Positions 7,403 to 41,577 of a stretch of DNA of 64,000 nucleotides are shown here, in pieces. The stretch covers positions 2,232,001 through 2,296,000 of the forward strand of contig NC_068565.1 of NCBI RefSeq assembly GCF_025698545.1. The letters are read 5' to 3'. The first letter of the stretch is position 1, and the number at the start of each line of letters is the position of its first letter. Position numbers and translations under genes: made by a program. Under the pieces are notes generated by a model. It saw only the letters and a program-made list of their open reading frames with translations, ran no database searches and had not been told where the DNA came from. The DNA is from Gossypium raimondii. Taxonomy: Eukaryota > Streptophyta > Magnoliopsida > Malvales > Malvaceae.

Positions 7403-7600
7403 ATTCGCTTGTTTTTTGCTTTAGTGTTCCAAGGTATAAGCGAGACGAGATAGAAGAAGAAGCTTTGCGAAGCTAAAACCCTAAACTCGTTGATCGATCA
7501 GAGTTTCAGTTCTCCACTTTCGAAATGGAAAATCCTTCGTGAATTGGAAACTATCTCCTAGGTTTTTAAGGCCCATTGTTGAAATTATGAATTGGGCTTT
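7403..7600 (-). promoter_or_regulatory. HYPK promoter: telo-box plus two site-II elements
   Basis: Upstream of the HYPK ATG are AAACCCTAAA (plus-strand 7476-7485, telo-box), GGCCCA (7570-7575) and TGGGCT (7593-7598). Telo-box plus TGGGCY is the known promoter signature of plant ribosomal-protein, translation and snoRNA genes. It fits a ribosome-associated product. An hAT-type element begins only 65 bp beyond this block. Confidence 0.6.
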
Positions 7601-7664
7601 AATTTATCAGAAGATTGGTCCAAACTTTGCAAGGCCGATTAAATTCGACTTATAGGATGAGCAA

Positions 7665-8115
7665 TAGAGGTGCTCATGAGCCGGGCGGCCCGGCCCGGCC
7701 TGACGGCCTGCCCGAAATATGGGAGGGTTTGGGTAAAAATATAGGCCTGAAATATGGGCTTGGGCAAAAAAATGAGGCCCGTTTAGAAAACGGTCCGGGC
7801 CTCGGGCACCACTTTTTTGGCCCGGGCCTGGCCCGATATAATAAATATATTTATTTTTTAAAAATTTTTTAATTTTAAAATATTTTTAAAATACTTTTTT
7901 ATTATTTTTTAATTTTAAAATATTTTTAAAATACTTTTTTTAATTTTTAAAATAAATTTTTGGTATTTATTAAAAAATGGACCGGGCCGGGCCCGGGCTT
8001 ATGATTTTTTCCCGGCTGGGCCTGGGCAAAATTTCAGGCCCATATTTCGGGTCGGGCCGAAAATTTTTATGGGCTCTGCCCGAATCCGGCCTGGCCCGGC
8101 CCATGAGCACCTCTA
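7665..8115. mobile_element. hAT-type MITE with perfect 8-bp target duplication
   Basis: The element is bounded by TAGAGGTGCTCATG and its exact inverted complement. It is flanked on both sides by ATGAGCAA (7657-7664 and 8116-8123), an 8-bp target site duplication typical of hAT. The arms are unusually GC-rich (repeated ggcccgg/ccgggc) while the centre is almost pure A/T. There is no transposase. The intact duplication and ends suggest a fairly recent insertion. Confidence 0.85.
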
Positions 8116-8812
8116 ATGAGCAACGGTGTAAATCAAATTAATTAATTTAAGTTTATTATTTTGATTAAATTGATTTAGGGTTTGTTTTAAATAATTAAGA
8201 CGATCAATTTTTTATTAATAAAATATATTTAACTTACCCAATCGATTTAATCGAATTTAATATATATTATTTATTTATTTTAAATATATTTTAAATATAA
8301 TTTAAATTAATCCGATTTAACTCGATTATAATATATATTTTTATATTAAAAAATTCAGTTAAACAACTTAACCGATCAAATCAACTGATGTGAAGTTGAT
8401 TCGATGGTTTAAAACGAAAGTTGGTCAATTAGTTATGTTGGAGGTTGGTTTATTAAGTCGGTTATATATGAAAATTGATAAATAAATAAAAACCAGAGGT
8501 TACATTGGTAGTCATATTAGGCATAATTATTTTGATTTTTAATCTAAAATTTTTTATATATGGTAGTCATATTGGACATAATTATTTTGATTTTTTATTT
8601 TTAATATATTTTTAATTACTTTTGTAATTGATAATAATTGAATTTTTAACCCATAATTCATATATAAAAAGACATCAAATACATATTCTTAAAAAAAACA
8701 CATACATAACTGATTAGTATATTTATTATTTGTTTTATATCAAAATGATAAATTTAATATTTAATTTGATTCTAAATAAATAATTTAATTTAATCAATGA
8801 CTCGAATGTGAC
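8116..8812. repeat. AT-rich intergenic with a short tandem duplication
   Basis: No gene is seen. A phrase of about 38 bp beginning ggtagtcatatt occurs at 8507-8544 and again at 8562-8600. The region before 8450 resembles a decayed repeat with 'aatcgatttaatcg'-like inverted phrases. Confidence 0.5.
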
Positions 8813-15444: not shown

Positions 15445-16458
15445 ACAAATGCTAGTTTAGAAAAAAAATTTATCTATTTTTAAATAAAGGAGGAAAAATG
15501 CAATATAGCTTGGTATAATTCCTCGTTCAATGCTTCCATAGTATTTCTACGACACTAAAAATCTTATTACATATGTATATATATATATATGTGGAAACCA
15601 CAAATCTAAAATACAAAATTATATTTAAAAATAATATATAATAAATAATGAAACATACAATATAAAATTTAATAATAATAAATGAAATATATACAATTTT
15701 TAGATTAAATAGTGAGGAAAAAAAATTTAAACACATAAATATGAAAAAAAAAAGCTTAAGTGCATAAATTGAAAAATTGGGATAATTTTTCATTACTAGG
15801 ATGAAATTCTCTAAGATTTACCCAAAATATTTCAAATTTTTTTATATAAATTTTCTCTCAAACTATTGAGTAAAAAAAAAAAACGCCGTTGCCGGGGATC
15901 GAACCCGGGTCACCCGCGTGACAGGCGGGAATACTCACCACTATACTACAACGACTTATTGGATAATTATTAAGAAACTTGCTTATAATAAAATTCGGCC
16001 TTAAAAGAACTAAAGGATAGACTCTAGTTCTTGCTGTTCAACAAAGAGATTTGATTGGTAGAAAACCAGATCCATGGATTAATCGGCAGTCTTAGTTTGT
16101 TTAGAGTTTTACCCCAACATTTGTATATTCTCTCCTTTGTTGTTTTCCCTTTGATCTTTTATCTTTACAAAATACGAAAAAAAGTAATCTCTGTCAATGG
16201 TCATGACAGCTTGAGTTCAAACTCTCATTTATATTGTAAGAAATTAATATTAAAAAATATTATTAATACAAAAAATTTCTACCTTTTCCTAAAAATTAAT
16301 TTACTTCCTTTCAAACTCTACACCCTAAAATCTTTTATTTTACTACATAATTTCACTCTACAAAAACATCAACTTATCATTTTCATTATAAATGATCCGA
16401 TTGCCTCAAAATAACTCAACTCAATAAAAAATCCCAAATCATTAGACATTTCGATACA
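15445..16458. repeat. Tandem duplication unit 1 (tRNA-Asp unit)
   Basis: The unit starts near 'gctagtttagaaaaaaaat' and is repeated directly downstream at 16459-17445. The two copies align along their length with scattered substitutions and small indels. Each holds one tRNA-Asp gene near its middle. Open frames in the units are chance. Confidence 0.85.
15884..15955 (-). tRNA. tRNA-Asp(GUC), copy 1
   Basis: Read on the minus strand this is a complete 72-nt tRNA. The 7-bp acceptor stem is GTCGTTG / CAACGGC with discriminator G. The anticodon loop CCTGTCACG carries GTC. The T arm contains GGTTCGATCC. A run of twelve T residues on the minus strand follows immediately, a strong Pol III terminator. 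There is no intron. It charges aspartate for GAC/GAU codons. Confidence 0.97.
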
Positions 16459-17445
16459 ATCAAACGCTAGTTAAGAAAAAAGAATAATTTGTCCATTTTT
16501 TAAATAAAGGGGAAATGTAATATAACTTGGTATAATTCCTCATTCAATGCTTCCATAAATTTCTACCTGACACTAAAAATCTTATTACATATGTATATAT
16601 GTAGAAAACACAAATTTAAATTACAAAATTATATTTAAAAGTAATATATAATAAATAATGAAACATACGATATAAAATTTAATAATAATAAATGAAATAT
16701 ATACAAATTTTAGATTAAGTAATGAAGAAAAAATTTAAACACATAAATATAAAAAAAGCTTAAGTGCATAAATTGAAAATTTGGAATATTTTTTCATTAC
16801 TAGGATGAACTTCTCTAAGATTTACCCAAATTATTTCAATTTTCTTTCTATAAAATTTCTCTCAATTTATTGCTTAATAGACATCAGTAAAAATAACGCC
16901 GTTGCCGGGGATCGAACCCGGGTCACCCGCGTGACAGGCGGGAATACTCACCACTATACTACAACGACTTGTTATTAAGAAATTTAGCTATAATAAAATT
17001 TGGCTGCAAAAGAAGTAAAGGAAAGACACTAGTTCTTGCTGTTCAACACAGAGATTTGATTGGTAGAAAACCAGATACATAGATTAATCGGCAGTTTTAG
17101 TTTGTTTAGAGTAGTAACCCAACATTTGTATATTCTCTCCTTTGTTGTTCTCCCTTTGATCTCTTATCTTTACAAAATACGAAGAAAAACAATCTCCGTC
17201 AATGGTTATGACAGCTTGAGTTCAAACTCTCATTCACATAGTAAGAAATTAATATTAAAAACATATTATTAATACAAACAAATTTCTATCTTTTCCCTAA
17301 AATCTTTTATTTTACTACATGATTCCACTCTACGAAAACATCTAACCATCCTCGTAAAGTTTATCCTTTTCATCATAAATAATTCATTTGCCTCAAAATA
17401 ACCCAACTCATTCCCAAATCATTACACCTTTCAATACAATCAAAA
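16459..17445. repeat. Tandem duplication unit 2 (tRNA-Asp unit)
   Basis: Second copy of the ~1-kb unit starting near 'cgctagttaagaaaaaag'. It ends near 'cctttcaatacaatc', mirroring the end of unit 1 ('catttcgatacaatc'). A head-to-tail arrangement implies unequal crossing-over or replication slippage. Confidence 0.85.
16897..16968 (-). tRNA. tRNA-Asp(GUC), copy 2
   Basis: The 72 bases are identical to copy 1 while the flanks of the tandem units differ at many positions. The terminator is weaker here: five T residues a few bases past the 3' end on the minus strand. All stems and the GTC anticodon are intact, so it should be functional. Confidence 0.97.
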
Positions 17446-17721
17446 AACCATTATCTTAGAAACTCAATTTATGTGATTAAATAAAACTTCATCTATCTAT
17501 TGAGGGTCAAGTACTCTTCCTCCTTCCCTTAAATAAATTAATTTTTTGTATGTTCTATTTTTTAATTTTTTTTGAATTACTTAATTTGAGGTCCTCAGAG
17601 ATAAGAATACCACATTGTTGAAGTACAGAAATTTGTCATTATCCACAATATCAATACAATTTTCAAAATTTCTTTAATATTATTTAAATAAATTACCCAA
17701 GTTTAACAGAGATGAAAAAAA
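17446..17721. other. Intergenic, 3' side of the non-coding cluster
   Basis: AT-rich sequence without a recognisable gene. It would contain the 3' end or terminator of the minus-strand snoRNA/miRNA transcript. Confidence 0.4.
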
Positions 17722-17805
17722 AGTATCAGGGCTGCAATTTCCATCAAATTAAGAGGATTTCATTTGAAATCACCTCAGAGCCCAGTGCATATCTCATCAT
17801 CTACA
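17722..17805 (-). ncRNA. C/D-box snoRNA-like unit A
   Basis: On the minus strand a perfect C box ATGATGA (17800-17794) and D box CTGA (17729-17726) lie at the ends, with a short terminal stem (GTA/TAC). An internal D' CTGA is at 17778-17775 and a C'-like TTGATGG follows. The guide segments are ATATGCACTGGGCT before D' and GGAAATTGCAGCC before D. I could not match either to rRNA from memory, so the target is unknown. It is a diverged duplicate of unit B. Between D' and C' both copies form a small hairpin in which the sequence differs but pairing is kept. Confidence 0.6.
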
Positions 17806-18024
17806 TAGAAAAAACTTTATAAAAATAAATTAAATTTTTTTATTAATTACAAAAAAAATCATTGGGGATTTTTTAAGGGGATTTTACAGAATCTTATAAT
17901 ACTTGAAATTTTGAAATAAATTGATGGGTTAAATTCCCTAAAACTATAATTAAAGCTTAACTTCACAGAACAAGCTACTAATGCTGCAATTTTCTCTTCC
18001 CTGAACTGGCAAATAAACGCCCAT

Positions 18025-18150
18025 AGAGCTGCCAAGTGATGCTACAGTCATGGGCACGGTATAATTTGCTGTTAATGAAAGCAACAAATCATCAAAAACA
18101 GCAATCCATACCGTGCCCATAACGTAACTTCGATTAACAAGCTTATTTCT
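18025..18150 (-). ncRNA. MIR2947: MIRNA hairpin, miR2947-type
   Basis: On the minus strand the two arms form a long near-perfect stem: 13 consecutive pairs (ATGGGCACGGTAT with ATACCGTGCCCAT), then about ten more with two G-U and one mismatch, around a loop of about 25 nt. Outward the arms keep pairing for about 20 more bases with small bulges. The 3' arm at 18063-18042 contains a 22-mer beginning TATACCGTGCCCATG that agrees with my memory of the cotton miRNA ghr-miR2947. The 5' arm opposite would give the star strand. The fold is seen directly; the family name is from memory and needs a miRBase match. The 69-codon open frame here is a shadow. Confidence 0.78.
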
Positions 18151-18173
18151 TCCAACCATAGAAGGAACTTCAA

Positions 18174-18268
18174 AATATCAGACTAGCTTTCTAGGCTGCA
18201 ATTTCCATCAAATTAAGCAGAGTTCATTTGAAACTGCTCAGAGCCCAGTGCATATTTCATCATATAAT
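18174..18268 (-). ncRNA. C/D-box snoRNA-like unit B
   Basis: The minus strand shows a perfect C box ATGATGA (18263-18257), a D' CTGA inside GGGCTCTGAGC, a C'-like TTGATGG and a D box CTGA (18181-18178). It shares guide segments with unit A. Just before D it carries an extra 12 bases (copy A has GCAGCC directly before CTGA; copy B has TAGAAAGCTAGT inserted), which would change or abolish the D guide. The terminal stem is weaker than in unit A. Confidence 0.55.
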
Positions 18269-18324
18269 AAAAACAACGGGTTCCTTGAAAAATACGAAAA
18301 AAAATAAAGCATTAAAAAGAAAGG

Positions 18325-18402
18325 GTCCTCAGTGGATTTGCTTATAGTTGTCATCAAACAAAAAATTTGATCAGGTCTCAAAGATATCATGCCATCATTG
18401 GA
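18325..18402 (-). ncRNA. C/D-box snoRNA predicted to guide 18S rRNA C38 methylation
   Basis: On the minus strand: terminal stem TCC/GGA, C box ATGATGG (18398-18392), D' box CTGA (18374-18371), C' TGATGA (18356-18351) and D box CTGA (18332-18329). The 11 nt before D' (ATCTTTGAGAC) are fully complementary to GTCTCAAAGAT near the 5' end of plant 18S rRNA. By the D+5 rule the methylated base is C38, which to my knowledge is a real 2'-O-methylated position in plant 18S. The D-guide target is unknown. It is the first RNA in the minus-strand cluster. Confidence 0.8.
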
Positions 18403-18419
18403 AACCCTAATAAATTTTG

Positions 18420-18600
18420 TAAAATTAATAATAAATATTGGGGGAAATTTTTTTAAAAAGGGGATTTTGCAGGATCTTATTCACTGCACCTGGGAAAATA
18501 ATGAAGGAGAAGTGACTCAACATTTCTGCAAATAATCTATGCCTCTTGAAATTTTAAAATTTTGATGGTGAAATTCCCTGAAACTATGAATATTAGATTA
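18420..18600 (-). repeat. Diverged copy of the 17840-17955 segment
   Basis: Phrases here ('ggggattttgcaggatctta', 'cttgaaattttaaaattttg', 'aaattccctgaaactat') match 17866-17950 ('ggggattttacagaatctta', 'cttgaaattttgaaat', 'aaattccctaaaactat'). So the duplication that made snoRNA units A and B included flanking DNA. The segment may hold another structured RNA, but I could not fold a convincing one. Confidence 0.55.
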
Positions 18601-18689
18601 AAGGGAACCCATCAAGAGACAATTTCTACAGAAAACTTCCAAGAGAAAATTTCAAAGAAAAGAGAAAAGTTGATTGATGTTAATTGAGG

Positions 18690-18935
18690 CGGAGGCAGAG
18701 CGGAGGATGGGTATATATACTGGGGAACTGGAATTAGGGTTTTGAGTAAGGGAAGGACTTGAGTTGCCGAAAAAGTCCTCAAAATATTATAAAATGACCG
18801 TTTTACCCTAATGGTGAGCCCCTTTATGAAGGGTAGCTCAAGTTTGAGCCCATAGGGTTAGACCATGGAAAAAAACAAATGGGCCAAAAACCCAAAGCTC
18901 AATCCAAAAATAAATGGATCATATGAGGCCCAGGA
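18690..18935 (-). promoter_or_regulatory. Promoter of the snoRNA/miRNA cluster: TATA, telo-box, three site-II motifs
   Basis: Reading leftward, the plus strand holds GGCCCA (18927-18932), TGGGCC (18880-18885), AGCCCA (18847-18852, TGGGCT on the minus strand), TTAGGGTTT (18734-18742; telo-box AAACCCTAA on the minus strand) and a TATATA box (18712-18718). This order and spacing is the classic plant snoRNA/ribosomal-protein promoter. Transcription should start near 18680 and run to lower coordinates through all the RNAs listed. Confidence 0.7.
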
Positions 18936-26131: not shown

Positions 26132-29064
26132 TGTAATAGCCCTGAATTTTCAAGTGATGTCGGAATGGTGATTCGAGATCACTAAATCTGACAAATGAGT
26201 AGAAAATATTATTAATTTAGTGAGTATAAGTTATGTGAAGTTAGGAAAATTTTTGAAATAGTGAATAGTGTACTAGGAATAAATATTAAAATAATTAGAA
26301 TCGAAAATGAGGTATCGAAACCTCAAACTCATAAATCAAGCCATAAATATTTTTAGAAATATTTATAGATGTCATTAAGTAGGTATTAAAGTTTCGCTAG
26401 AAAATTCTAATGTTTGGGTGGTCAATTAATTCAAAAGGACTAAACTGAAAATAATGTAAAATTTGTTAAAAGTGATTAAATAGCTTAAGTGGTAAATAAG
26501 GAGGGGCTTAAGGCATAAATATGCCAATATGGAATAGTTTAGACGACATAAGAGAAGAAAAATCTGAAAAAGTGATGTAATAAGGGTGAAATTGGAAATT
26601 TTGTAAAAGTTAACAAATAAAAATCTTAACTAAAAGAGTTTCTAGGCAATTCATCATATTTCTCAGCAAAAAAGGCCATTGAAGGGTCCCTCCTAGCTGG
26701 TTTTTCATATATTTGAATCATGTAAGTTTAATTCTTGATTATTTTTTCTAATTTTTGTGATTTTGATACTTTTACAATTAGGTCCAACTAATTATTTCAT
26801 TAGTTTTTGATTTCATGGCTGATTTTGAGAGTTACCATTGATGAGTGCTGAATTTTTATGATTAATGAACATTTAATTAAAGCTTTAATTTTATTATATG
26901 ATGATTTTATTAAGTAATTTTGATAGAAATTGATTTTAGGGACCTAATTGTGAAAAAGTTTAAAATTAGGGTTTGGTGTTGCGGTTTTGAATATTAAAGG
27001 CTGTGTAGTAGTCTAAAATAGTTGGACAAGGTGTTAATTGAGAAAATTTATATCAATTGAGGGGTTAATTGAGTAGGGATCAAATTGTAAAAATTGTAAA
27101 GTTGAGGGTAAAAGTATAATTTCAAAAATTAAAGGGCATAAATTGTGAAATGAATTAGAATTGAATTAGATGCTGATGAATGAATAAATTTGTATTTTAG
27201 ATCGAGAACCCGAAGCAAGCCGAGGAAAAGAAAAAGTAGTTGATTAGTCCCTAAACTTTTACAAATTATGCAAATCGACCCAGGTACGTTCATATGGCTG
27301 AAATTTAATGATTAAATGTTAAATTCATGAATTATATAATGTATGATGAGATATATTTATTGTTGAAATTAGAATAAAATAAAAATGCAAATACTGAATA
27401 AATGATCAAATTGAGCGGAACGTCGAATTTGAGTACTTCTAATCAATGACAAGTGATAAATGGTAGCTTTAGCTACACTTATCTGATTGGTGACAAGTGG
27501 CAAGTGATAAGTGATAGCTTCAGCTACACTTATCTGATCAGTGACATATGACAAGTGATAAGTGGTAGCTTTAGCTACACTTATCTTATCAGTGACAAGT
27601 GGCAAGTGATAAGTGATAGCTTCAGCTACACTTATCTGAGCAGTGACATATGACAAGTGATAAGTGGTAGCTTTAGCTATACTTATCTGATCAGTGGCAA
27701 GTGATAAGTGGTAGCTTAGCTACACTTATCTAATCAGGGACAAGTGATAAGTGATCATACGTAAGACCATAGTTATACTATGGCAAAGTGAAAGTGAAGT
27801 ACTCAATTTTCCGTAACCGTTCCCTAATTTTGATTAAGGATGGTAAGTGACAAATGGGCCCAAAAGAATTATAGTAAAAGAATAAGTAGTAGTGAATTTA
27901 TACCAAGGGACTCACCAGTGATTTTGGTTGACAGATAAACTTAGTAATGATGTATATTGTATAAGTGTATAAATGTTTGTTAAGATTTATGTTTTCTGCC
28001 TATGAACTTACTAAGCTTTTTATAAGCTTACTTGTGTGTGTTTATTGTTTCTTGTAGATTGATATATATATACGTTCGAAGGATCGAATCTACATCAAGA
28101 ATCACACTATCCGATTTACTCCAGTAGATTTTGTTAAACAAATGTATAGGAATTGAAGTAAAAAGTAATATAATGAATGACTAAGTATGCAAAGTAAATC
28201 TAAATGTGATGGTTGTGTTAGACATTGAAATATACATGTTTTAGCTTGAAATGGTTGATTGGTTGAACTTTATTAGTATTTAAATTAAGTAGTTGAAATA
28301 CTAAAATTGGTTGTGAAATGAAATTTGCAGGGAATGTTAGATAATTATAAAGGGTTATATTGAAACTTTTAAAAATAAAATAAAATTGCAATGGAACAAT
28401 TTTTGGACAGCAGCAATGATGTAACTTTGAAAAATCACCAAAAATAGTGGAAATTGAATTAGAAGTTGAGTGAGATATGAAATTAAAGCTGAATGAGTCT
28501 ACTTTCACATGAAAGAAAAGAGTAAGAAAAAGAGTTATATATTTTATATATTTGAATATTAGTGAGATAGGGTAAGAATAGTTTCTAAAGTCCCCTGTTC
28601 TGACTTTAGAAATTCATTAAAAATTGTAAAAAGGAATTATGAGTTATAATTTATATTTTTAGATTTATTAATGAGTCTATTTTAAGTAGAAATAAGTGGA
28701 AGCACCATATCAAGTCTGTACAATGAGATAATTGAATTTTAGTGATGAGAGGTCAAGATAGTCGATCAGTGAAACAGGGGAGAATTTAACTAATAAAATA
28801 TACTAATTGGCTAAACCAAAAATTCTTAAAAATTTATGGTGAATAGACATATGAGTCTAGTTTTGTGAAAAATTTACAGATATGAATTTTGAGTTTTTTA
28901 GCTTGATTTATAATTTATTTAGTGACTCCAGCGCAGGTGGACAGCTTTATTATGAACAGTGAAATAATTTTTAAAAGTAAATTTTTATGCCCCGAACTTT
29001 TAAGTTAAGTCAAGTAACGCCTCATGCTCGAATTCGGCAACGGTCTTGGGTAAAAGGTGTTATA
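26132..29064 (+). mobile_element. Solo LTR, gypsy-like family, 2.9 kb, inserted only in segment copy 1
   Basis: The ends are TGTAATAGCCC and GGTGTTATA. The duplicated sister locus at 40247-40268 gives the empty site (aatccatttggcgtgag). Flanks cattt/gattt represent a 5-bp target duplication with one change. No internal retroelement genes are visible. It is younger than the segmental duplication. It contains a tandem array of hairpin-forming units at 27440-27745. Confidence 0.75.
27440..27745 (+). repeat. Tandem array of palindromic units within the LTR
   Basis: About six units of roughly 50-60 bp are repeated. Each contains an imperfect palindrome: GATAAGTGGTAGCT, a 2-base centre, then AGCTACACTTATC. 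Units alternate between 'ggtagctttagct' and 'gatagcttcagct' versions. Translation of the array yields a meaningless repeated peptide. Confidence 0.8.
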
Positions 29065-29755
29065 GATTTGGCATGATTTTAAATCACATCATAAGCATAC
29101 TTTTTTTTTGTTTGTTTTTTAAATGAAAAGGCTAAAGTAATTTCAAATAATATGACTTGTTTTAATTATGAAAAGACATTTTCGTAATTTTTTAACTGAG
29201 TTGATATTTGATTAACTCGTTATACAAACTCAATCAGAGACTTTATTAATAATAAGTATATATATAACTCGTGGAGATGATAAATTGTGTATATTAAAAA
29301 ATGTATAAAGATATTAAAACAATGTAAGTGACATTTATAATTAAATAAAAATATTTAAAATTAAATTATTTTAAAATACACGTGTCAAACATTCTGCAAA
29401 AAAAAATTGAAACGGAACACGCTCGCAAGAGCGGTCCGACCGAACGATCCACACCCCCAGCCAATACCAAAAGCCAATAAATTAAAGGGAAAATACCCAA
29501 TAATCGACGCATGCTTTCTTTACGGCCTTTTCTCTCCCTCTAACAACGAACCATCGGCATCCGTTACCGACTCCGTTCCGTCCGTTCATCCCCGTTCTAA
29601 CATATTTCTCTGACTTCAACAAAAGCCGTAATAAATTATTTTTCTCTCTTATTTTTTGGAATTTTGGTTTCAAAAATCTAAAAAATTCTGAATCTAAATT
29701 CCTTTTTTTGCATTTTTTTGTAATTCACCGAATCGTACAGATTTGATCCGGTGTG
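29065..29755 (+). promoter_or_regulatory. Upstream region and leader of bHLH copy 1
   Basis: It is shared with 40255-40932. It contains a moderately GC-rich stretch (29407-29615) that is nearly identical in both copies and is probably promoter-proximal or 5' UTR sequence. It ends in the T-rich leader 'cctttttttgcatttttt' before the ATG. A 68-codon frame starting at 29407 is present in both copies but resembles no known protein. Confidence 0.5.
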
Positions 29756-30399
29756 ATGGCGTCCACAGTAATGAATCCATCGACAAACATGAATTCTGAT
29801 CGAAGGAAGATGATGATGAAGAAGAAGAAACCGATGATCAAAGAGAATCAGATCAACCAGAGCCACACCAGATGGAAATCAGAGACACAGCAGCAGATCT
29901 TTTCCTCGAAACTCGTTGAAGCTTTGAGTCATCTCAGTCTGGAAAACGGTTCCACTCCTTCTCTTTCGGCTCCACGCGGTGGTCGAGCTGTACGTGAAGC
30001 TACTGATAAAGCTTTGGCCATCACGGCTAAAGGAAAAACCAGGTGGAGTCGAGCCATTTTAACGGGCCGGCTTAAGCTGAAGTTTCGAAAAAGAGGATCT
30101 GCCGCTGATGTGGCGGCCATCACCGGGATAGCCGGTCGAAGAAACCGAGAGTTAGCATTTCGAAATTGAAAGCGAGAAGTACACCGAATGTTCTAAGGAA
30201 AGTGAAAGTTCTTGGACGATTAGTTCTCGGTTGCCGAAAGGAACCATTACCAGTTATTCTTGAAAAAGCTACTGATTACATAGCAACACTTGAGATGCAA
30301 GTTCGAGCCATGACCACTCTCGCCGAGTTGCTATCTGGTTCCGCCGCCAGCTCTAGCTCAGTCCCTCCGCCTCATTCGCCGCCGCCGACTAGGCAGTGA
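29756..30399 (+). pseudogene. Atypical bHLH (AIF/bHLH147-150-like) copy 1, frameshifted
   Basis: The frame opens as in copy 2 ([17 protein letters not shown], then [20 protein letters not shown]). Relative to copies 2 and 3, one base is missing at about 30128 ('cgggatagcc' versus 'ggagtagcc'), and 12 bases are missing in frame just before. The frame then runs to a stop at 30167-30169, giving 137 aa without the helix-loop-helix. The HLH and tail remain intact in another frame (30166-30399) but have no ATG. This looks like a recent pseudogene. A truncated N-terminal product is possible but would lack the dimerisation domain. Confidence 0.85.
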
Positions 30400-33345: not shown

Positions 33346-34162
33346 CATGTTATATGTTATGTTTTTATTGAAAAAGGTTTTTTTTAGTAAACTAGGATGA
33401 AAATGATAATTCAAAAACTAAACTATTATAAAAAAATAGGTACGAAAATAAGAAAATATCTATAATTTAGAGTACTAATATATTATTTTTGAATAATCTC
33501 ATTATAAATTTTGATTACATCTGTTATTTGTGACACAATGTTAGAACTACCCATATCCCTTCCTCAATTCATAAATAGAAGGATATTATACTTCAGCGTA
33601 CTCAAACTCACATCCTCCCGTATTGGCAACAATGTTTATACCAACCCAGCTAATATTTAATGTCGTCCAAGATTCTAATATAAATAGGTTATTTAATTAA
33701 ATATCACTTTAATCAATGTATATTATCACAAAGCAAGTGAAAAAAGCAGCACTTTTCAGCTGTCAACATCCACCATTAGTGCTTCTTTTTTCAAAAGTAA
33801 TTACATCCTTTTTTGTGTGTGTGAAATTCGTGTCACCTTATTGTTAAAACACATGCTTGCAATCATACCCTTTTCAAAATAATTTTAAAAAAAAGCTTGG
33901 AAGCTACCATCCTCCACCACACCACACCAAACCCTTTCCTTATCAAATATCAAAATATCTAATTAAATTAATATGATTTATTTAAAAAAAATCACCAACC
34001 AATATTCATAATTTGATTAGTCTATTTAATAACTAATTAAGGATTATAAACATAGAGATAATCAATGCCTAACCTAAGATTAAGTCAAGAGATAATCTAA
34101 ATTCCTTTTTTTTTGCAGTTTTTTTTGTAATTCACCGAATTGTACAGATTTGATCCGGTGTG
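33346..34162. repeat. Copy 1 far-downstream segment and junction into copy 2
   Basis: 33346-33890 matches 42600-43180 and 36056-36570. It includes SINE copy f. 33890-34098 matches 47259-47452, so about 4 kb present after copy 3 is missing here, with a short shared 'aaaatgctt'-like phrase at the break. At about 34100 the sequence jumps into the bHLH 5' leader ('atctaaattcc'), the start of copy 2. Confidence 0.75.
33520..33650 (-). mobile_element. tRNA-derived SINE copy f
   Basis: Minus-strand family member ('acacaatgttagaactaccc', 'cagcgtactcaaactc'). Copies g and i are its duplicates in the other two segments. Confidence 0.6.
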
Positions 34163-34819
34163 ATGGCGTCCACAGTAATGAATCCATCGACAAACATGAA
34201 TTCTGATCGAAGGAAGATGATGATGATGAAGAAGAAACCGATGATCAAAGAGAATCAGACCAACCAGAGCCACACCAGATGGAAATCAGAGACACAGCAG
34301 CAGATCTTTTCCTCGAAACTCGTTGAAGCTTTGAGTCAGCTCAGTTTGGAAAACGGTTCCACTCCTTCTCCTTCGGCTCCACGCGGTGGTCGAGCTGTAC
34401 GTGAAGCTACTGATAAAGCTTTGGCCATCACGGCTAAAGGAAAAACAAGGTGGAGTCGAGCCATTTTGACCGGCCGGCTTAAGCTGAAGTTTCGAAAGCG
34501 AAAGAGACAGAGAGGATCCGCCGCTGCTGTGGCGGCCGTCACGGGGAGTAGTCGGTCGAAGAAATCGAGATTTAGCGTCTCGAAATTGAAAGCGAGAAGT
34601 ATACCGAACGTTCTAAGAAAAGTGAAAGTTCTTGGACGGTTAGTTCCCGGTTGCCGAAAGGAACCGTTACCGGTTATTCTTGAAGAAGCTACTGATTACA
34701 TAGCGGCACTTGAGATGCAAGTTCGAGCCATGGCCACTCTCGCCGAGTTGCTATCTGGTTCCGCCGCCAGCTCCAGCTCAATCCCTCCGCCTCATTCGCC
34801 ACCGCCGATTAGGCAGTGA
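34163..34819 (+). CDS. Atypical bHLH transcription factor, AIF/bHLH147-150-like (intact copy 2)
   Basis: A single-exon gene of 218 aa. Features in order: a basic Met/Lys-rich N-terminus; the family block [20 protein letters not shown] (39-58); a conserved [26 protein letters not shown] block (78-102) followed by Lys/Arg-rich KFRKRKRQR (109-117), likely nuclear; and the HLH (about 142-195) with VLRKVKVLGRLVPGCR, helix 2 VILEEATDYIAALEMQVRAM and a Leu-rich end. The region before the HLH lacks the H-E-R DNA-contact pattern, so by family knowledge it acts as a non-DNA-binding HLH that sequesters partners in brassinosteroid/growth control. The tail is Ser/Pro-rich. ATG 34163 is chosen; the preceding in-frame GTG is not a start. 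It is the only open copy of three, yet its segment starts about 60 bp upstream, inside the leader. Confidence 0.88.
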   Translation: MASTVMNPSTNMNSDRRKMMMMKKKPMIKENQTNQSHTRWKSETQQQIFSSKLVEALSQLSLENGSTPSPSAPRGGRAVREATDKALAITAKGKTRWSRAILTGRLKLKFRKRKRQRGSAAAVAAVTGSSRSKKSRFSVSKLKARSIPNVLRKVKVLGRLVPGCRKEPLPVILEEATDYIAALEMQVRAMATLAELLSGSAASSSSIPPPHSPPPIRQ

Positions 34820-40932: not shown

Positions 40933-41577
40933 ATGGCGTCCACAGTAATGAATCCATCGACAAACATGAATTATGATCGAAGGAAGATGAAGAAGAAGAA
41001 GAAACCGATGATCAAAGAGAATCATATCAACCAGAGCCACACCAGATAGAAATCAGAGACACAGCAGCAGATCTTTTCCTCGAAACTCATTGAAGCTTTG
41101 AGTCAGCTCAGTTTGGAAAACGGTTCCACTCCTTTTCCTTCGGCTCCACGCGGTGGTCGAGCTGTACGTGAAGCTACTGATAAAGCTTTGGCCATCACGG
41201 CTAAAGGAAAAACCAGGTGGAGTCGAGCCATTTTGACGGGCCGGCTTAAGCTGATGTTTCGAAAGCGGAAGTGACAGAAAGGATCCGCCGCTGCCGTGGC
41301 GACCGTCACCAGGAGTAGCCGGTCGAAGAAACCGAGAGTTAACGTCTCGAAATTGAAAGCGAGAAGTATACCGAACGTTCTAAGGAAAGTGAAAGCTCTT
41401 GGACGGTTAGTTCCCGGTTGCCGAAAGGAACCGTTACCGGTTATTCTTGAAGAAGCTACTGATTACATAGCGGCACTTGAGATGCAAGTTCGAGCCATGA
41501 CCACTCTCGCCGAGTTGCTATCTGGTTCCGCCACTCCAATTTCACCCCTCCCCTCATTCGCCACGACTAGGCAGTGA
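40933..41577 (+). pseudogene. Atypical bHLH (AIF/bHLH147-150-like) copy 3, two nonsense codons
   Basis: The reading frame is kept from ATG to the normal stop (215 codons), but two in-frame stops interrupt it: TAG at 41047-41049, replacing the conserved Trp of TRWKSET, and TGA at 41272-41274 in the Lys/Arg-rich stretch. The HLH and its flanks are otherwise intact, so inactivation appears recent. The C-terminal tail is rearranged (SATPISPLPSFATTRQ). Unlike copy 2 it keeps the full upstream segment. Confidence 0.87.

What the first reader, a model, noticed from the sequence alone, without database searches (positions are those of the whole stretch)
17720..18935. A snoRNA-miRNA polycistron: three C/D snoRNA-like units and a miR2947-type hairpin behind one telo-box/site-II promoter
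Seen: on the minus strand, three TGGGCY motifs, a telo-box and a TATA box are followed within 1 kb by a C/D snoRNA, snoRNA-like unit B, a long miRNA-grade hairpin and unit A, all in the same direction. Known: plant snoRNAs are often polycistronic and use exactly this promoter type, while plant MIR genes normally have their own Pol II units. Inference: a miRNA precursor is embedded in a ribosome-biogenesis transcript, so DCL1 and snoRNA processing would compete for one precursor and the miRNA would follow growth-linked control. I know of few such arrangements in dicots.
Basis: partly seen in the sequence, partly recalled or inferred. Interest (0 to 1): 0.78.

Follow-up and report, generated by a model that had tools for sequence, protein, structure and literature searches.

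The report
Cotton snoRNA cluster encoding miR2947
A cotton gene of the kind that makes ribosome-modifying guide RNAs also carries a known microRNA hairpin, which looks like a captured piece of the transposon-derived gene family it probably silences.

Summary
On the minus strand of a Gossypium window, three Site II motifs, a telo-box and a TATA box precede snoR66, snoR118, a strong hairpin and a second, borderline snoR118. The hairpin carries published cotton miR2947, 22 of 22 letters. One shared transcript is inferred; none was seen.

The arrangement is a known kind: sno-miR775 and sno-miR779 of Arabidopsis (PMC4660826). There snoR775 was unaffected in dcl1-7, against the predicted processing competition.

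(1) Leader and snoR118 are tandemly duplicated; the second unit lacks snoR66, and the hairpin sits at the junction. (2) The complement of miR2947 reads LQSWARY, the conserved motif of plant mobile domain (PMD, 'phosphatase 7 long form') proteins. With the 2009 target prediction, this suggests that MIR2947 arose by inverted duplication of a PMD gene and silences that TE-derived family. One bulged base gives a 22/21 duplex, typical of phasiRNA triggers. PMD silencing, phasiRNAs and growth-linked control are untested; one fibre degradome table names no target.

The parts
18927..18932 (-). Site II element TGGGCC
   Evidence: a cluster of 3 Site II + telo-box was not seen in 300 simulated windows
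18880..18885 (+). Site II element TGGGCC (opposite orientation)
18847..18852 (-). Site II element TGGGCT
18735..18742 (-). telo-box AAACCCTA
18712..18719 (-). TATA box TATATATA; transcription start expected about 18690 (inferred)
   Evidence: only TATAWAW on the minus strand of 18960-17690
18403..18690 (-). transcript leader (inferred start); blocks 18592-18545 and 18480-18412 recur in the second unit
18325..18402 (-). snoR66, box C/D snoRNA; guide of 18S C38 in Arabidopsis
   Evidence: Rfam RF00202 75.2 bits, E 1.9e-14; target from PMC8053127 Table 1
18175..18267 (-). snoR118 copy B, box C/D snoRNA; guide of 25S C2198 in Arabidopsis
   Evidence: Rfam RF01424 72.2 bits; target from PMC8053127 Table 1
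18030..18140 (-). MIR2947 foldback
   Evidence: MFE -54.6 for the 111 nt; the 21 miRNA nucleotides that pair in the fold keep their partners with probability 0.95-1.0 in the folded 1-kb transcript
18105..18125 (-). predicted miR2947* (21 nt, 5' arm)
   Evidence: 2-nt 3' overhang geometry
18042..18063 (-). miR2947 (22 nt, 3' arm), one bulged U; its complement encodes LQSWARY
   Evidence: 22/22 identity to cotton miR2947; duplex; peptide
17833..17952 (-). second-unit leader, blocks 17952-17902 and 17897-17833 homologous to 18592-18545 and 18480-18412; no snoR66 follows it
   Evidence: 82% and 70% identity; leader-to-leader local score 36; 1 of 500 shuffled pairs and 0 of 216 control windows reach it
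17710..17804 (-). snoR118 copy A; nearest D box CTGA at 17726-17729, so the mature RNA may be shorter; D' guide kept, D guide changed
   Evidence: Rfam RF01424 44.7 bits against cut-off 44; boxes

Best explanation
A Gossypium sno-miRNA gene. One Pol II transcript from a telo-box/Site II promoter starts near 18690 and carries snoR66, snoR118-B, pri-miR2947 and snoR118-A. The snoRNAs are cut out by the plant pre-snoRNA RNase III route and guide 2'-O-methylation of 18S C38 and 25S C2198. DCL1 excises a 22/21 miR2947 duplex from the hairpin between two tandemly duplicated snoRNA units. The miRNA is derived from, and most likely silences, PMD-family ('phosphatase 7 long form') transcripts at the site encoding LQSWARY. 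Shown: the DNA anatomy, snoRNA family membership, miRNA identity and the PMD-like coding of the 3' arm. From the literature: miR2947 and its star were sequenced in cotton, and sister genes are co-transcribed in Arabidopsis. Inferred: one transcript, DCL1 processing, PMD silencing.
For: Rfam gathering hits for three snoRNAs. TeloSII cluster absent from 300 simulated windows, order SiteII-telo-TATA-leader, a single TATAWAW. Exact miR2947, published with miRNA:miRNA* reads 80:1 and with qRT-PCR of its predicted target running opposite to it; counts of 1119, 1617 and 1672 in a fibre small-RNA table whose column heads were not in the passage. Hairpin z -5.1, asymmetric 22/21 duplex. Published sno-miR775/779. 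PMD: the complement of the miRNA reads LQSWARY; 8 of 120 PMD hits hold it exactly and 70 of 120 at 6/7 or better, while the other five frames and reversed proteins reach at most 4 identities. A second search with words and scores only from residues outside the motif gave 5 of 120 exact and 52 of 120 at 6/7 or better; 75 of these 120 were already in the first list, and among the 45 new ones the counts are 1 and 9. The 17-residue 3'-arm read scores 59 against PMD; 0 of 5000 random reads of the window reach that. The 2009 paper independently predicted a 'serine/threonine protein phosphatase 7' target, the name given to some Gossypium PMD proteins.
Against: No RNA data here: co-transcription, snoRNA accumulation and target cleavage are unproven. 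A cotton fibre table with degradome targets reads NA for miR2947. One passage of the 2009 paper calls the same target a serine/threonine kinase. snoR118-A barely passes its cut-off and its distal Rfam alignment has sparse matches. A TATAAA lies just before snoR118-A. The 5' arm's PMD resemblance is weak (score 34; 110 of 5000 random reads reach it). Motif-matrix scores of both arms (-0.9 and -7.7) lie far below real PMD segments (27-73), though they rank 1st and 3rd of 127,882 positions; the best of 1000 hairpin shuffles reached 1.8, above the observed, against a shuffle mean of -29.0. In the second PMD set one control frame reached 5 of 6 in one protein, and one of the six frames was not counted. 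No relative's DNA could be examined, so conservation of the arrangement is unknown.
Confidence: 0.77

Rival explanations
1. MIR2947 has its own Pol II start and merely lies between snoRNA genes.
For: Plant MIR genes usually have their own units (general knowledge); no transcript was seen here.
Against: Only 34 bp separate snoR118-B (ends 18175) from the hairpin base (18140), no TATAWAW lies between 18712 and the hairpin, and two published sno-miRNA genes with this promoter are single transcripts, by cDNA and RACE for sno-miR775 and by 5' RACE for sno-miR779. TATA-less starts are not excluded.
Confidence: 0.13
2. The second snoR118 (unit A) is a decaying pseudogene and the functional gene ends at the miRNA. 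(Compatible with the main reading otherwise.)
For: 44.7 bits against a cut-off of 44, D guide altered; snoR66 missing from that unit.
Against: C box, D' box and the D' guide are kept, and a CTGA lies at 17726-17729.
Confidence: 0.35
3. The hairpin arose from random sequence or a small transposon, and its PMD resemblance is chance.
For: 5' arm resemblance is weak; exact 7-mers to some PMD position occur about 3 times per simulated window (120 in 40) and twice in this window, once elsewhere (26146-26166).
Against: That rate gives only about 9e-5 for the four 7-mers of a 22-nt site (my arithmetic); the match falls in PMD's conserved motif; the 3' arm read exceeds all 5000 control reads; an independent EST-based prediction named the same family.
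Confidence: 0.15

Closest known systems
sno-miR779 of Arabidopsis (PMC4660826)
   Same: TeloSII promoter with TATA box, two C/D snoRNAs upstream of a pre-miRNA in one transcript
   Different: Different snoRNAs (snoR128/129) and a miRNA too weak to see on northern blots; here a further snoRNA lies downstream, the unit is duplicated, and the miRNA is clearly expressed in cotton
sno-miR775 of Arabidopsis (PMC4660826)
   Same: TeloSII promoter, snoRNA then pre-miRNA, 5'/3' RACE-mapped single transcript, miRNA forms of 21-24 nt
   Different: One H/ACA snoRNA instead of C/D snoRNAs
gar-MIR2947 / gh-miR2947 (PMC3091316)
   Same: Identical 22-nt mature sequence
   Different: Reported from an EST, with no snoRNA context in the passages read; here the genomic setting is given
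phasiRNA pathways on TE-derived genes, e.g. 175 PHAS loci at PMD genes in tea (PMC10673657)
   Same: PMD transcripts as small-RNA targets; 22-nt asymmetric duplex anatomy here
   Different: The possible triggers named for tea are other miRNAs; no phasiRNA evidence was found or tested for cotton miR2947

Membership tests
TeloSII plant sno-miRNA gene (Qu et al. 2015) | Telo-box and Site II upstream of a TATA box | tested here: met
TeloSII plant sno-miRNA gene (Qu et al. 2015) | Recognised snoRNA(s) and a miRNA precursor downstream, same strand | tested here: met
TeloSII plant sno-miRNA gene (Qu et al. 2015) | A single transcript spans both | not testable with these tools
   needs RACE, cDNA or long reads
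miR2947 | Mature sequence identity | tested here: met
   22/22
plant miRNA criteria | Foldback with 2-nt 3' overhang star and few mismatches | tested here: met
   one bulge in the miRNA strand, 21-nt star; star reads only from the paper
snoR66 (RF00202) | Rfam gathering score | tested here: met
   75.2 vs 43
snoR118 (RF01424), copy B | Rfam gathering score | tested here: met
   72.2 vs 44
snoR118 (RF01424), copy A | Rfam gathering score and proper D box | tested here: inconclusive
   44.7 vs 44; D box displaced
miRNA born by inverted duplication of its target family (PMD) | Both arms and flanks resemble the target gene | tested here: inconclusive
   3' arm strong (0 of 5000), 5' arm weak (110 of 5000); no PMD DNA was compared
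22-nt phasiRNA trigger | Phased siRNAs from its targets | not testable with these tools
   only the 22/21 asymmetric duplex was seen

The most novel reading that the evidence does not exclude
A captured fragment of a transposon-derived PMD gene became a 22-nt miRNA inside a ribosome-biogenesis snoRNA transcript, so that growth-linked TeloSII transcription drives phasiRNA-mediated silencing of the large PMD family in cotton, and guide RNAs for rRNA and a TE-family silencer are made from one precursor.
Probability: 0.27. Interest if true: 0.74.

Novelty: new member of a known kind. Interest (0 to 1): 0.5.

Why it matters
It places a known, expressed cotton miRNA in a snoRNA operon, extending the two Arabidopsis cases to Malvaceae with a miRNA abundant enough to assay. 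It links the miRNA's origin to the TE-derived PMD family, and makes two questions testable at one locus: whether a growth-linked promoter sets the dose of a TE-silencing miRNA, and how two RNase III routes share a precursor.

Tried and rejected
Rejected: that the hairpin is an Rfam miRNA family (best mir-276, 29.6 bits against a cut-off of 62). Rejected: that the hairpin descends from the snoRNAs or leaders (local scores 9-12, shuffle means 10.6-12.0). Rejected: a snoR66 remnant in unit 2 (score 9, shuffle mean 10.9). An H/ACA RNA in the leader: only a chance-level hit (SNORA79, E 2.9). The 69-codon ORF across the hairpin was noted but not pursued. Exact-pattern scans of genome contigs and viral contigs for miR2947, and of viral contigs for the snoR118 guide, gave 0 matches; these collections are not meant to hold plants.

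Literature: searches for miR2947, miR2947 with snoRNA, its sequence, with phasiRNA and cotton (0 papers), snoR118, and sno-miRNA or PMD combinations (with 15 of 24 listed, 62) showed, in titles and abstract starts, no report that puts miR2947 with snoRNAs or phasiRNAs. Of the six papers holding both 'miR2947' and 'snoRNA', the snoRNA passages were read only in PMC3091316, where snoRNAs are a read-annotation class. Passages on miR2947 were read in PMC3091316, PMC4519870, PMC5471329, PMC4869191, PMC7943613 and PMC3320894; PMC3338460, PMC3726788 and PMC4332481 were seen only as listings. PMC5122169 (plant snoRNA clusters), PMC8351944, PMC11222342, PMC11152179 and PMC10634144 were searched by passage and added nothing decisive; the first has no mention of snoR66 or snoR118 in its main text.

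Full report
What is there. The locus lies on the minus strand, 18935 to 17710. Site II motifs at 18927, 18880 and 18847, a telo-box at 18735-18742 and a TATATATA box at 18712-18719 stand in the order expected of a plant snoRNA promoter. Three or more Site II with a telo-box within 250 bp is found at two places in the 64 kb (here and at 8017-8183) and in none of 300 first-order Markov windows. Rfam puts snoR66 at 18325-18402, snoR118 at 18175-18267 and a second snoR118 at 17710-17804, the last just above its cut-off. In Arabidopsis these families are assigned to 18S C38 and 25S C2198 by RiboMeth-seq (PMC8053127, Table 1 seen as passages). The D' guide of each matches the Rfam consensus; I did not align them to rRNA, as no plant rRNA was at hand.

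The miRNA. The foldback at 18030-18140 has an MFE of -54.6 kcal/mol. The wider 201-nt stretch has z = -5.1, with 0 of 200 shuffles folding as well. Within a folded 1-kb transcript the 21 miRNA nucleotides that pair in the foldback keep their partners with probability 0.95 to 1.0. Its 3' arm holds cotton miR2947, 22 of 22, whose sequence, star reads (80:1) and predicted target are in PMC3091316 (passages). That paper calls the target a serine/threonine protein phosphatase 7 homologue, in one place a serine/threonine kinase, and reports its expression running opposite to the miRNA. Other cotton papers report the miRNA as expressed: 1119, 1617 and 1672 in a fibre table, which reads NA in its target columns (PMC4869191, passage), and high in elongating internodes (PMC7943613, passage). 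One bulged U in the miRNA strand makes a 22/21 duplex. That 22-nt forms depend on foldback structure and can drive RDR6-dependent siRNAs is stated in PMC4660826.

How the locus was built. The leader blocks 18592-18545 and 18480-18412 and snoR118-B (18277-18194) recur in the same order at 17952-17902, 17897-17833 and 17815-17730, with 82%, 70% and 87% identity. Leader against leader scores 36; 1 of 500 dinucleotide-shuffled pairs and 0 of 216 control windows reach that. snoR66 leaves no detectable trace in the second unit. So a leader-snoR66-snoR118 unit was most likely duplicated in tandem, the second copy lost snoR66, and the hairpin lies at the junction. The second unit has no TeloSII cluster or TATAWAW of its own, though a TATAAA stands 12 bp before its snoR118, so it probably depends on the upstream promoter. 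Whether the hairpin came before or after the duplication cannot be told.

Where the miRNA came from. The complement of miR2947 reads LQSWARY in one frame. I recalled this as the motif of plant mobile domain proteins and tested it. Of 120 listed PMD hits (1871 in all), each listed one with Pfam PF10536 and mostly from Gossypium, 8 hold LQSWARY exactly and 70 match 6 of 7 or better; the other five frames and reversed proteins reach at most 4 identities. Because my typed query held that motif, I repeated the search with residues 40-200 of a fetched G. raimondii protein named phosphatase 7 long form homolog: 5 of 120 listed exact and 52 of 120 at 6 of 7 or better; among the 45 proteins not listed before, 1 and 9. 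There four of the five other frames were counted and one reached 5 of 6 in a single protein. Extended to 17 residues, the 3' arm read (CQVMLQSWARYNLLLMK) scores 59 against CLSLLQSWARYRLLFLR, 10 of 17 identical; 0 of 5000 random stop-free reads of the window do as well. The 5' arm is weaker: 34, reached by 110 of 5000, and it is not independent, being the other half of an inverted repeat. In a motif-matrix scan the two arms rank 1st and 3rd of 127,882 positions, with scores (-0.9, -7.7) well below true PMD segments (27-73); 1000 hairpin shuffles average -29.0 but the best reached 1.8. This agrees with the independent 2009 target prediction and points to birth by inverted duplication of a PMD gene, but nucleotide comparison is still owed.

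What it means. PMD proteins are TE-derived; MAIN and MAIL1 act with PP7L in gene expression and TE silencing in Arabidopsis (PMC7156037, abstract start and passages). In tea, 175 phasiRNA loci lie at PMD genes (PMC10673657, passages). A 22-nt miRNA against the conserved PMD motif is therefore a plausible trigger in cotton; my two searches on this found no report of it.

Comparison with the known. Qu et al. 2015 (PMC4660826; abstract, passages, section 7 part 1 and section 11 read) describe TeloSII dicistronic genes sno-miR775 (cDNA and RACE) and sno-miR779 (5' RACE), and rice candidates. This locus fits that class on the DNA features tested. It differs in having three snoRNA copies flanking the miRNA on both sides and a clearly expressed, PMD-related miRNA. 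In that study snoR775 and snoR129 were unaffected in dcl1-7, against the competition idea.

Organism. An IBH1-like protein at 34163-34816 is 96% identical over its full length to a Gossypium tomentosum D01 protein, so the window is Gossypium, probably of the D lineage; this rests on one protein.

Limits. No plant DNA outside the window could be examined: the window's own genome was unreachable in nine attempts, and the two collections scanned are not meant to hold plants. All statements about transcription and processing at this locus are inference.

Noticed in passing
15500-17530: About 1-kb tandem duplication, each copy with a tRNA-Asp(GTC) gene (15884-15955 and 16897-16968, minus strand), directly downstream of the cluster.
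   Followed up: partly
7476-8183: A second Site II/telo-box cluster (four Site II within 90 bp plus a telo-box); the gene it serves was not identified.
   Followed up: no
17950-18159: A 69-codon ATG ORF on the minus strand runs through the whole miRNA hairpin; possibly chance, possibly a pri-miRNA peptide.
   Followed up: no
18402-18409: A further telo-box-like TAGGGTTT (minus strand) abuts the 5' end of snoR66.
   Followed up: no
29747-30169, 34154-34819 and about 41103-41462: Repeated IBH1/bHLH148-like gene copies (the third inferred from a shared antisense ORF), the second 96% identical to a Gossypium tomentosum D01 protein.
   Followed up: partly
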